Part shown: positions 59,601 through 63,811 of the stretch, in pieces
Layout of the letters: each line of letters begins with the position of its first letter
Numbering within the stretch: the first letter of the stretch is position 1
Assembly: GCF_040436345.1 (NCBI RefSeq)
Contig: NC_133235.1
Span: 15,356,160-15,420,159, forward strand
Direction of reading: 5' to 3'
Origin: Pagrus major
Taxonomy: Eukaryota; Chordata; Actinopteri; Spariformes; Sparidae
Length of the DNA: 64,000 nt
Position numbers and translations under genes: made by a program
The notes under the pieces: model-generated
The model's database searches: none
Told to the model about the DNA's origin: nothing
The model's input: only the letters and a program-made list of their open reading frames with translations

Positions 59601-62600
59601 ATGTAAGAAGAGGTCTTACCGATGGCTGGGTCCATCCAGTGCCCTGTCCTTCAGAAAGCTGATGGTGGGTTTTTTGGAGATGGATACTCCAGCGTCTGCT
59701 TCCTCTCCCTCGTCGCAGCTGTCGACAGACTTGAAAGATGTCTGGCCCCATCGTCGACGTCCTGACCTCACTCCAGTTGCGTTGTTCTCTGCTCCTGTGG
59801 GAGCTGCTCTTGGAGGCTTAAAATGAACATATTAGAAAAATATTATTAGACAAATTAGAAAAAAAAGTTCTGTAAGGCCAAAGAAGGTCCGAATCTGACA
59901 TTTATGAACTGTACCTGAGTGACACCTACAGCCTGCCAGTTCGTTGGCTGCCTGCTTTTCACCAGGCTGAGAGGTTCCTGCTGCCCCTCTGTCAGCGTGG
60001 TGAAACTCATTGTTTTTTTTGTGCTGTGTTCCATGTTGTCCTGAGGTAGGGAGATCTGATGAAGGGGCCGGTGGAGAGACTCGCTAGACTCTAGTTCCGT
60101 CTTACAGAGGGACAGAGGTTTTGTCTCTGCAGCTGCCTGGGACATCTTTGCCTGAGCCATGAGAGGGGCACCGAGCGCCTGGCCGACATGGAAGTATGTA
60201 TACCGTAGAGCCTGGAAAAATATCTTCAGTTACATCTTTTTTAGTTCATGTCCAAGCTTAGTCAGATTTTCCATGAATGAGAATGTTAAAGCATGAAGAG
60301 GACAAATATAAAGAAAATTGTTAGATAAAAAAGTAAAATTAGCTGTATCAAAATAAAAATCGCAGACATGGGAATACATGTAAAGGACTAATCACACAAA
60401 CCACCACCGCACATTTCCTACAGATCTAGAGGCTGATATTTAAAATAGATTCATAAATATATGAAAACAGCATGCAGCATTCTATCTTTTGTATTTTTAA
60501 GCTTCAGCAGAAGTTAAAAGGTCAGGTCATAATAATGTGGGTCTGTCTCACACTTTGATTGAAGTCAGTGGAACTGCGTTGCCTCAGTATGTCCAGATGT
60601 CAAGTTTGGTGTCACAGCAACTGCCAAGGTGAGATGACTGATTCCCACTTGTTGCTAAAAAAAGCTGCACTCTGATAAAGTTGCTCTGGATAAAATCATT
60701 CACTGATGTGAACACTGTCACCTCAACATCAGTCTGTCGTCTCGACTCTAAGCGTTGTATGTTTTGTATGTGAAAACCTCATGGTTTTTCAATGTACCTG
60801 AGCAGCACTCGGTCTTTTCTCAGGGTCCCACTGCAGCATGTCTTTCATCAGCGTGATCGCCTCGTTGCTGGCGTTGGGGATCAGTGATCTGAGGCTGGTG
60901 GGAACACACTTTGGGAAGCGGAAGTTCATCGAGGTGGCCAGGTTGTAGCCCTCAGGCCAATCCGACTGAGGAAGCAGAACCAACGTTAGTCATCTGTGAG
61001 TTTGTGTGCAGCCTTATGTGTGCCTGCATGCATTCACGAAGGTATAAAATACAAATCACAAATATTTTCTTTATACTTTTGAATTGGTAAAGAAATCAAG
61101 TTTGTCACAAAACAGCAACTTTTGCTTCTGGTGTCTTATAAAAGGTGAAACATGTGAATTTTAATGGCAGTGGTCCAAACAGAGAGGGCGTCAGCATAAT
61201 TGATGACACCTGTTGTGATGGTTCACCTTTTTCAGCGTTCCCAGCACCTGACAGATCTTGAAGATTTCATCCACCTCACTGTTGCCAGGGAACAGGGGTC
61301 TGAGTGTGTAGAGCTCGGCCATGATGCATCCCACAGCCCAGATGTCGATGGGTGAGCTGTAGGAGTTCGACTTTAGTAGAACCTCTGGAGCTCGGTACCT
61401 GTCATAACAGCACGGGAGGATATTTATTGAACACTTAGTGACCTGTATTCCATGCTGTATTCTATTACTATTGTTGATCAATTGACAAAATTTGCAAACA
61501 GTCCTCATTTATTTCATCTGATCTTACTTATAATAAATGCTTTTGTCTCCTAGTACAGGAATTGCACTTTGCCCTGATATGATGTTGTAAATAACTGAGT
61601 CTCACCATCTTGTGGACACATATTCAGTGTAAGGTGGCTGCGAGCGGATCTCTCTGGCTTGTCCAAAATCAGCGATCTTAACCAGCTCTGGGCCCATGCA
61701 GAGCAAGTTCTCTGGTTTCATATCACGATGGAAATACCCTGAAAAACATGAGACAGTCAAATAAACCTGTGCTGATGCTGAGATTGGTCTAGATTTGCAT
61801 TATATTTTAGTTTCTACTACTATTACAACCACCACCACTTGACATGACTCTAATGATGCATATCACTATTTGATGTTTTGACTGATATGCAAACAGGAAC
61901 AGAGTTCAAACATCTCTGAGATGAAAAAGATGTTTTAACCTGACAAAACACAGTCAAGCCAAGCCTTTGAAGGGTAAGTTCACCCAAAGATAAAAACAAT
62001 TCAGTAATTATTTAGTTTTTGTAGTCCACAAAACATTTCTGGAGCTTCTCAGCAAGACAGCGCTGCGGCATTCTCCTAAACAACTACGAGTAAGCAAGTA
62101 CACATGGTAGAGCTCGTGTACCCACTTCAGATGGGGTGCGTTAACATCTTTTCAAATCAAACTGGGATCTTGAGGCTTCTGGAGACTTGGATTATGTAGG
62201 ACAAGCTGTATGAAGTCATGTACTTTCTAGTAGTTATTTAAAAACATTTTAAAAGTCCCCATCTTCTTCAGTTGTTTAGAGAATGCTGCAACACTGTTTT
62301 GCTGTGAAGCTCCAGAAATGATTTGTGGACTACGAAACTCACCTGGCTTTTCATCAGCATGATTGTAAGTAGATAATGACTGATTTTTTATGTTTGGGTG
62401 AGCCTATCCTTTAAGGAAACATAAAGGAAAAGAGAAAGACAGGAGGAGACTCTTACCGTGCTTATGCACAAATGCTAAGCCAGACAATACTTGGAACAGA
62501 ATGTTCCTTATCTCATTTTCAGAAAACATCTTATCTTCCCTGGCAGCGGCAAAGAGGTAAAAGACAAAAGATAAAAAAGAAAGAAAGAGGGGATAAAGAA

Positions 62601-63811
62601 AAAAACAAAATGCAAAACAATCATGCCTTATTGAAGTGGAAATGACTCCAGCACCCACAAACACTAAAAACAGTGCTGATTTTAGTATTTTTTTCTGACC
62701 ACTCACACCTCCTCTTCTCACTGAGGACACAGGAGAAGTGATTCATTTGTGGCTGATGTCTTATCAGCCGTCCAGCAGTCATATACAATTCAACTTCAGA
62801 TTGTTCTTTTCTGTTCACTCAATTAAATACTATTTATACAAAGACAATGCTGACAGCAGCATATCACGGCATTTCATAGGACAGAAAAGACAGCAGAGTC
62901 AGTTTTCATCAGTCTGTAGTCACCTACCATTTTTGTGAATAAACGACAGTCCCTGTAATATCTGAAATATCATGTTTCTGACGACTGACTCAGGGAACAA
63001 CTTGTTTCTGCAAAAACGAAGACCGACACATGATGACTCAATCCGAAATAATTCTCACATTCCCAATGGTAATAAAAAAACACACTCACTGCAGAATTAG
63101 ATCACAAAAATAACTCAGCTAGTGTGAATACATTGTGTGTGTGATTTTGCTGCCTGTGCATTCTTACCTGTCGTTCATAAGCTGATAGAGGTTTTCTTTC
63201 ATGTACTCAAAGACAAAGTAGAGGTAGTCGTTTTCTCTGATGACTTCCCTCAGTTTCACTACATTGGCATGGTTCAGCTTCTTCAGTGACTGAACACAGA
63301 GTGTTTAGGAGACAATAGAGTCATTAAGAATCAGCTCAAATACCTGAACACACTGCTTGAAATGAGCTTTTTTTCCCCTCAAATTTCAGCTACAACACTA
63401 AAATAAACAATTAATGGCTAAAAATGTTTCTATCTCTGGAAAGAGACATTGCTGTTGACTTTTTCAAATGTGTTTTTTGGCACTTTGAGCACCACAAGCC
63501 GAGTGCCATCTGTTTCCATTATATTTCCATTATATCTCTACGGCGATATCTCCAAAACTCGGCAACTCATGCCAAAACAATCTAAAAGGATAAACAGCAC
63601 TGCAGGAGGAGGAAAAATATGTTTTGTCTAAATATGTGTCCCTTTAATCTACAGGGCAGAATTTTACAAGTGAAAACATTAGTGGTTTAAAATGATAATA
63701 CTGTAAATGCTGTATCAACTTGTGGAGATTTCTTGTCTGACTATAATGATTCTCACCTTCACCTCTCTTAGATTCAAGCACTCATCCCAAGAAAAAAACT
63801 TCCTCTTCATC
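56695..63811 (-). CDS. mak: mak, male germ cell-associated (RCK-family) ciliary protein kinase, 5' partial
   Basis: Minus-strand exons: 63811-63757, 63289-63168, then 63007-62928 or 62539-62457 (alternatives), 61738-61606, 61398-61227, 60965-60798, 60211-59915, 59816-59620, 59537-59428, 58982-58872, 58188-58117, 57883-57764, 56834-56695. They give 591 residues plus stop; about 34 N-terminal residues, with the start, P-loop and ATP lysine, lie beyond 64000. Visible kinase motifs: [38 protein letters not shown] and [19 protein letters not shown]. The C-tail has [11 protein letters not shown] and ends [11 protein letters not shown], as in human MAK (VAKYGGHR). Known role: phosphorylation of kinesin/IFT targets and cilium length control in photoreceptors and germ cells. 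The MAK-specific tail excludes the paralogue cilk1. The last junction (57764 to 56834) is inferred from phase. Confidence 0.94.
57429..57560. repeat. Degenerate short-unit repeat
   Basis: Repeated variants of 'cgttataacaagaaactt' and its near-complement (cacattataacaagaaac, cgttacaacgtgagaag, ttattataacatgaaac). It lies in the last mak intron. Confidence 0.45.
61966..62417. mobile_element. Fold-back (palindromic) MITE FB3 in a mak intron
   Basis: The left arm (61966-62095: gggtaagttcacccaaa, gtagtccacaaaacatttct, ggagcttctcagcaagaca, ctaaacaact) is the reverse complement of the right arm (62266-62417: gttgtttagagaatgctgc, gctccagaaatgatttgtgg, tgtttgggtgagcc). A loop of about 170 bases separates them. 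No ORF. Confidence 0.8.
62457..62539 (-). CDS. mak: mak alternative exon, version B
   Basis: An 83-base exon flanked by ctgccag and gtaagag. It encodes [19 protein letters not shown] then GLAFVHKH. It aligns over its whole length with version A, with one extra codon near the start. Entry and exit phases are identical, so it can replace version A without a frameshift. Confidence 0.85.
62928..63007 (-). CDS. mak: mak alternative exon, version A
   Basis: An 80-base exon flanked by tttttgcag and gtaggtg. It completes an Arg codon and encodes [18 protein letters not shown] then GLSFIHKN. This is the form closest to mammalian MAK (NKLFPES). It enters in phase 2 and leaves in phase 1, the same phases as version B. 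Confidence 0.85.

What the first reader, a model, noticed from the sequence alone, without database searches (positions are those of the whole stretch)
62457..63007. Mutually exclusive duplicated exon inside the MAK kinase domain
Two tandem exons, 80 and 83 bases and 388 bases apart, encode alignable versions of the segment just before the catalytic loop ([16 protein letters not shown] versus [16 protein letters not shown]). Both enter in phase 2 and leave in phase 1, with good splice sites. Joining A to B shifts the frame into TAA within 11 codons; skipping both runs into TGA within a few codons. Splicing must therefore choose exactly one, giving two catalytically distinct kinases from one gene. 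Version A is mammal-like; version B is divergent but intact. I do not know of a report of this switch.
Basis: partly seen in the sequence, partly recalled or inferred. Interest (0 to 1): 0.85.

Follow-up and report, generated by a model that had tools for sequence, protein, structure and literature searches.

The report
Swappable exon in fish kinase MAK
This fish gene for the cilium kinase MAK carries two alternative versions of one small kinase-domain exon, and because both copies of the duplicated gene keep both versions the choice between them very probably matters, although no RNA has yet been seen.

Summary
In detail: exon A (63007-62928, 80 nt) and exon B (62539-62457, 83 nt) are homologous, same-phase, GT-AG exons of a mak gene on the minus strand. 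The new evidence is a second mak gene in the same genome (C19), which carries its own A and B at the same place, lengths and phases. B versus B: 17 of 28 third codon positions differ but only 2 of 28 residues; 0 of 100,000 neutral simulations were as conservative. So B is very probably translated in both genes and predates their split. The third paralogue (C15, cilk1-like) has only A, between introns of 84 and 85 nt. The frame lock (both exons or neither shifts the frame) holds in both genes. Both B exons share an 80-97 nt pyrimidine tract, against 7-17 nt at 16 other acceptors, the asymmetry described for U2AF-responsive duplicated exons. Steric exclusion does not fit. Exon B replaces the segment that in MAP kinases forms the alphaD-alphaE linker and helix alphaE of the docking groove; catalytic motifs lie outside it, so a docking switch is likelier than 'catalytically distinct' kinases. 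RNA evidence and taxonomic depth are missing.

The parts
63757..63811 (-). mak coding exon 2 (coding exon 1 lies outside the window, in L009)
63168..63289 (-). mak coding exon 3 (e3), upstream partner of A and B; donor CAG|gtaaga
62928..63007 (-). exon A, 80 nt, the usual version; acceptor with a short pyrimidine tract (longest stretch of at least 85% pyrimidine 11 nt)
62540..62927 (-). intron between A and B, 388 nt
62542..62626 (-). AG-free zone (85 nt) upstream of exon B, holding most of an 80-nt stretch of at least 85% pyrimidine; one candidate branch point about 82 nt upstream of the exon (weak consensus match only)
62457..62539 (-). exon B, 83 nt, alternative homologous version; donor ACG|gtaaga
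61606..61738 (-). mak exon C ([10 protein letters not shown] ... DFGQ ... TEYVSTR), downstream partner of A and B
61227..61398 (-). mak exon D

Best explanation
Exons A and B are a pair of tandem-duplicated, mutually exclusively spliced exons of mak. Each productive mRNA carries one, giving two MAK kinases that differ only in the alphaD-alphaE linker and helix alphaE. Shown here: homology, phases, splice-site dinucleotides, frame lock, and conservation of the whole arrangement, with purifying selection on both exons, in a second mak gene. Inferred, splicing (about 0.55): exclusivity is not steric. It comes from competition between two unlike acceptors: A has a short tract and is probably the default; B has a very long, weakly structured pyrimidine tract open to PTB-like proteins competing with U2AF. 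Double-inclusion and double-skip RNAs are frameshifted and should go to nonsense-mediated decay. Inferred, protein (about 0.4): the exchange alters the surface that is the docking groove in MAP kinases (including the positions equivalent to ERK2 His123 and Arg133), so it retunes substrate, activator or phosphatase binding rather than catalysis. The confidence below is for the exon pair itself.
For: Second mak gene on C19 with A and B at the same place, 80 and 83 nt, same phases, same donor types. B/B: 21 of 84 bases differ, 3/1/17 by codon position, 2 of 28 residues changed; neutral mean 12.6, 0 of 100,000 simulations as low. A/A: 16 of 81 bases, 6 of 27 residues; 307 of 100,000. dN of B (0.031) equals that of exon e3 (0.031) and is below C (0.052), D (0.056) and A (0.112). 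Among 150 scored of 168 candidates in the genome, two exon-B copies. Frame lock in both genes. Longest stretch of at least 85% pyrimidine 80 and 97 nt at the two B acceptors versus 7-17 nt at the 16 other acceptors placed; hexamer-unpaired probability 0.55 and 0.65 versus at most 0.214. The same short-tract/long-tract asymmetry is described for duplicated exons activated or repressed by U2AF (PMC5224494, section 20). Docking groove of p38alpha: alphaD-alphaE linker 119-134 and alphaE 124-144 (PMC4370755 passages). Eight A-versus-B diagnostic sites, two of them at ERK2 His123 and Arg133.
Against: No transcript of either isoform was seen. The zebrafish mak cDNA study reports two isoforms that differ in exon 14 and, in the passages I saw, no kinase-domain alternative (PMC11273301). 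The AG-free zone is not unique to B: C19 mak e2 has 88 nt and e3 83 nt, C15 e3 70 nt. B is not significantly better conserved than A between the genes (Fisher p = 0.14). Apart from a 30-nt low-complexity match in the pyrimidine tract (E = 0.08), no intron element is clearly conserved between the two genes. The branch-point candidates of the C21 gene are weak matches. That MAK uses a MAPK-type docking groove at all is untested here.
Confidence: 0.82

Rival explanations
1. Exon B is a dead or decaying duplicate (pseudo-exon) that is never translated.
For: No RNA evidence; only the A version is in the C15 paralogue; the zebrafish cDNA paper passages do not mention it.
Against: Two of 28 residues changed against 17 of 28 third positions between the two mak genes; 0 of 100,000 neutral simulations as conservative, and 33% of simulations gained a stop. 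Splice sites and 83-nt length kept in both.
Confidence: 0.03
2. B is mainly a regulatory 'poison' exon: A+B inclusion gives a frameshifted RNA that is degraded, so B tunes MAK level and makes no protein.
For: A+B does frameshift into stops in both genes.
Against: A poison exon needs no amino-acid conservation in the frame that is read only when A is skipped, yet that frame is what is conserved (26 of 28 residues).
Confidence: 0.05
3. Usage is split between the two mak genes (one uses mostly A, the other mostly B) rather than switched within each gene.
For: Two mak genes exist, and only the C19 one has TGCATG (Rbfox-type) motifs, about 35 and 49 nt after its A exon (0.1 expected in that intron) and one after its B exon.
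Against: Both exons are conserved when the two genes are compared (A: 307 of 100,000; B: 0 of 100,000), which is hard to reconcile with an exon lying unused in one gene for long.
Confidence: 0.08
4. The pair is mutually exclusive, but the swap mainly tunes folding stability or basal kinase activity through the buried face of helix alphaE, not docking.
For: Four of the eight diagnostic sites are hydrophobic exchanges of core type (L to M, I to V twice, and I/S/M to L).
Against: The other four are polar or charged (P to S, S to N, V/A to E, Q to S), two of them at ERK2 groove positions His123 and Arg133.
Confidence: 0.35

Closest known systems
MAPK14 (p38alpha) homologous exon pair
   Same: A CMGC-kinase segment exchanged by homologous alternative exons; listed among such events with both isoform structures solved (PMC4465641 passages)
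   Different: From recall its exons encode a later part of the C-lobe, not the alphaD-alphaE/docking segment; a different gene
FYN FynB/FynT exon pair
   Same: Mutually exclusive tandem exons touching a kinase domain and changing binding affinities (PMC9741552 passages); one of the pairs with branch-point/tract indels (PMC5224494)
   Different: Tyrosine kinase; covers the SH2-kinase linker and the N-terminal part of the kinase domain
U2AF1 exons Ab/3 and other U2AF-responsive duplicated exons
   Same: One exon with a short, the other with a long, more unpaired pyrimidine tract (PMC5224494 abstract and section 20)
   Different: Human genes with knockdown data; here the response to U2AF or PTB is untested
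OGDH exons 4a/4b and tropomyosin pairs (distant branch point near the upstream donor)
   Same: Mutually exclusive exons linked to a distant branch point (OGDH: PMC7969005, abstract start in the listings; class: PMC1431707 passages)
   Different: There the branch point lies near the upstream donor; here the introns are 388 and 446 nt and the best candidate branch points lie about 306 and 375 nt from it

Membership tests
Mutually exclusive tandem-duplicated exons | Adjacent homologous exons of similar length and identical phase with canonical splice sites | tested here: met
   80/83 nt, same phases, GT-AG, 14 of 27 residues identical
Mutually exclusive tandem-duplicated exons | Joint inclusion or joint skipping shifts the frame (where lengths are not divisible by three) | tested here: met
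   Frameshift and stop in both mak genes; decay of such RNA not tested
Mutually exclusive tandem-duplicated exons | Both exons coding under purifying selection | tested here: met
   Neutral simulations as low as observed: A 307 and B 0 of 100,000
Mutually exclusive tandem-duplicated exons | Junction reads from each exon bridging the other | not testable with these tools
   No RNA-seq available
Exclusion by steric hindrance | Upstream donor less than 50 nt from the downstream branch point (criterion in PMC5740500 passages) | tested here: not met
   Introns of 388 and 446 nt; best candidate branch points 82 and 71 nt from exon B, AG-free zones of 85 and 87 nt; branch points are predicted, not mapped
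Exclusion by U2/U12 incompatibility | One U12-type and one U2-type intron | tested here: not met
   The four A and B donors are gtaggt or gtaaga; U12 consensus recalled, branch sites not tested
Exclusion by RNA docking structures | Conserved complementary elements pairing the introns | tested here: inconclusive
   Three inverted-repeat pairs in this gene and four in the C19 gene, none shared; the largest is a dispersed repeat
U2AF-responsive duplicated exons | Long, unpaired pyrimidine tract at one exon, short at the other | tested here: met
   80 and 97 nt at B versus 11 and 7 nt at A
U2AF-responsive duplicated exons | Splicing response to U2AF or PTB depletion | not testable with these tools
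   Needs knockdown
MAK kinase | Protein kinase domain of MAK/CILK1 type in a MAK gene neighbourhood | tested here: met
   Pkinase 1.1e-74 (B form) and 7.4e-75 (A form); TMEM14C beside both mak genes (PF03647), as tmem14ca and mak in zebrafish (PMC11273301 passages); MAK rather than CILK1 by residues is from recall
Teleost genome-duplication pair | Paralogous blocks with shared neighbours and old divergence | tested here: inconclusive
   TMEM14C beside both, dS about 1.4 over 166 codons; only 40 kb of C19 compared, no outgroup, and that the genome is a teleost's is itself an inference

The most novel reading that the evidence does not exclude
A ciliary MAP-kinase-like enzyme exchanges its docking-groove module (alphaD-alphaE linker plus alphaE) as a single cassette by splicing, so that one gene makes two kinases with the same catalytic machinery but different partners; the switch was already in place before the mak gene was duplicated, was kept in both daughter genes, and is absent from the sister kinase gene on C15.
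Probability: 0.35. Interest if true: 0.75.

Novelty: new member of a known kind. Interest (0 to 1): 0.52.

Why it matters
[quoted passage not shown] If fish make two MAK kinases that differ only in a docking segment, work on fish mak mutants, rescue constructs and substrates should ask which form is used; a rescue with one cDNA tests only one form. The pair is also a natural experiment on whether MAK-type kinases use a MAPK-like docking groove.

Tried and rejected
Rejected: pseudo-exon (selection); poison exon (conserved frame); steric exclusion and U12 incompatibility; a simple 'long AG exclusion zone' argument, because 2 of the 16 non-B acceptors also have 83-88 nt; 'B is better conserved than A' as a significant claim (Fisher p = 0.14). 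Dating the A/B duplication relative to the MAK/CILK1 split failed: five short exons without an outgroup give the same unrooted tree either way (reasoning on the distances; no tree was built). RNA pairing between introns gave nothing shared by both genes. Intron comparison between the two mak genes gave only low-complexity or short matches. Paper searches for a report of this exon pair: 10 of 10 hits listed; 0 hits; 5 of 5; 12 of 12; 20 of 873; 20 of 3,921; 10 of 151; 15 of 31; no title or abstract start listed describes it, and four of these listings are capped. Three catalogues of such exon pairs have no whole word 'MAK' in the main text; their supplements were not open to me, so absence from print is not shown.
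Full report
Observation. The window is G000:C21:15356160-15420159 of a 785.9 Mb, 25-contig genome. On its minus strand lies a mak gene whose first coding exon is just outside the window in L009. Exon A (63007-62928, 80 nt) and exon B (62539-62457, 83 nt) sit between e3 (63289-63168) and C (61738-61606). Both have AG and GT borders and the same phases, and either one restores the kinase frame...[47 protein letters not shown] or ...[48 protein letters not shown]. 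A finds B at E = 4e-9 in tblastn over the 23.8 kb mak stretch and two paralogue loci. A+B meets TAA after the junction codon and nine more, and the skip form gives VFPS-TGA.

A second gene with the same pair. A genome search with 221 residues of the A form (150 of 437 candidates scored) found two other loci whose exons are mostly 75% or more identical: C19:12.72 Mb and C15:8.86 Mb. The C19 gene (L041) also has both exons, A2 [27 protein letters not shown] and B2 [28 protein letters not shown], 80 and 83 nt, 446 nt apart, with the same donor types (gtaggt after A, gtaaga after B). A genome search with exon B plus the start of exon C (150 of 168 candidates scored) found these two B exons at 97% and 90% identity; the other 110 matches listed are at most 62% identical over this stretch, except three short ones that cover exon C's end or start, and they include the A exons of all three genes; I did not inspect them one by one. 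The C15 gene has only an A-type exon ([27 protein letters not shown]); no B was found in its 10 kb locus and its introns around A are 84 and 85 nt by the coordinates, too short for an 83-nt exon. By recalled residues (for example SEVDTIF) I take C15 for cilk1 and C21 and C19 for two mak genes.

Selection. Between the two genes exon B differs at 21 of 84 bases: 3, 1 and 17 by codon position, with 2 of 28 residues changed. Placing the same number of transitions and transversions at random changes 12.6 residues on average and never fewer than 6 in 100,000 trials. For exon A, 16 of 81 bases differ (3, 2, 11) and 6 of 27 residues; 307 of 100,000 trials were as low. Both exons are thus under purifying selection, B about as strongly as the neighbouring kinase exons (dN 0.031, against 0.031 for e3, 0.052 for C, 0.056 for D and 0.112 for A). 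The difference between A and B is not significant (Fisher p = 0.14).

Age. Over 166 codons without B the two genes differ with dS about 1.4; for exons B and C alone the synonymous distance is too large to compute. TMEM14C (Pfam PF03647) lies beside mak on both C21 and C19, as tmem14ca lies in the zebrafish mak region with tfap2a, gcm2, elovl2 and gnal (PMC11273301, passages). From recall, an exon on C19 looks like TFAP2A and one on C21 (L009) like GNAL (not tested). This fits the teleost genome duplication, but no outgroup was available, and that the genome is a teleost's is an inference from size, chromosome number and gene content. I therefore state only that B predates the split of these two genes. 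Whether A and B split before or after MAK and CILK1 cannot be told: A/B dN is 0.31-0.34 and A(mak)/A(C15) 0.12-0.13, but the unrooted tree would be the same either way.

How exclusivity could work. The frame lock holds in both genes: in C19, A+B runs out of frame for 34 codons and the skip form for 42 before a stop (counted). Steric exclusion does not fit: the introns are 388 and 446 nt, and the best candidate branch points lie 82 and 71 nt from exon B (predicted, not mapped). The donors of A and B are ordinary U2-type. What stands out is the acceptor. I placed 18 acceptors in the three genes (8, 6 and 4; not all of their introns). The longest stretch of at least 85% pyrimidine in the last 100 nt is 80 and 97 nt at the two B exons and 7-17 nt at the 16 others; the mean probability that a hexamer is unpaired is 0.55 and 0.65 against at most 0.214. 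The AG-free zone alone is not special, because C19 mak e2 and e3 have 88 and 83 nt. In human duplicated exon pairs, exons activated by U2AF invariably had shorter tracts than exons repressed (or less efficiently activated) by it, and repressed exons had more unpaired upstream sequence; FYN, MAPK14, TPM1 and TPM2 are discussed there (PMC5224494, abstract and section 20). The mak pair has the same design in both genes, so I infer A as default and B as the regulated exon. In the C19 gene only, two TGCATG motifs follow exon A by about 35 and 49 nt and one follows exon B by about 42 nt (about 0.1 expected in each intron), a hint of Rbfox control that differs between the genes. [quoted passage not shown]

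What the swap does. The exon ends just before the HRD motif (G-Y-F lie between); the catalytic motifs are outside it, and both isoforms match the kinase profile (251.6 bits for B, 252.2 for A) and solved CDK2 (190.1 and 191.4 bits) about equally. In p38alpha the docking groove is flanked by the alphaD-alphaE linker (119-134), alphaE (124-144), the beta7-beta8 loop and the CD site (PMC4370755, passages). In ERK2, Gln117 and His123 contact the docking peptide, and Tyr126, Gln130 and Arg133, with Glu81, form a pocket (PMC11982978, passages). On my ungapped alignment, set by hand from the HRD motif, all of these but Glu81 fall inside the exon; B has one extra residue (Glu) at its start. Eight positions are fixed in both B exons and absent from all three A exons, equivalent to ERK2 118, 120, 122, 123, 128, 131, 133 and 138; at 123 the change is Val/Ala to Glu and at 133 Gln to Ser, while at 126 and 130 A and B agree. 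I infer a docking or regulatory switch (about 0.4); tuning of stability or activity through the helix core is the main rival (0.35).

Known or new. Mutually exclusive tandem exons are a known kind, and kinases such as MAPK14 and FYN have them. I found no report of this pair or 52 (listings only, four of them capped), and MAK is not named in the main text of three catalogues (supplements not seen). The zebrafish mak cDNA study describes 15 exons and two isoforms differing in exon 14; in the passages I saw it mentions no kinase-domain alternative (PMC11273301). That counts mildly against wide use in zebrafish embryos, or the second exon may have been missed or lost there. I therefore call it a new member of a known kind, with good evidence for function and none yet for expression.

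Noticed in passing
window 61606-61738 (exon C): This mak gene encodes DFGQ and TEY where the C19 mak and the C15 gene have DFGL and TDY; the reading frame is otherwise open in the kinase exons read.
   Followed up: partly
L009, window-extended 65149-65293: An in-frame ATG about 24 codons upstream of the MNRYTT start with no stop between, so a longer N-terminus is possible.
   Followed up: no
window 62017-62337: A 59-nt inverted repeat (88% complementary) in the intron after exon B; part of it has at least 39 other copies in the genome at 84-90% identity, so a dispersed repeat element.
   Followed up: partly
L041, introns after exons A2 and B2: TGCATG motifs about 35 and 49 nt after exon A and about 42 nt after exon B in the C19 mak; none in the corresponding introns of the C21 mak.
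   Followed up: partly
window 48897-51471 (+), 53571-55290 (+), 40848-43139 (-): Neighbouring genes: WD40 exons that from recall look like PAK1IP1, a TMEM14C gene (Pfam), and exons that from recall look like an EndoU-type gene.
   Followed up: partly
window 2453-3748 (+): A 431-codon ORF with the start of a FYVE zinc finger (PF01363).
   Followed up: no
L010 (contig C25, 17,031 bases): ARAGORN calls eight tRNA genes in its first 10 kb, consistent with a mitochondrial genome.
   Followed up: no
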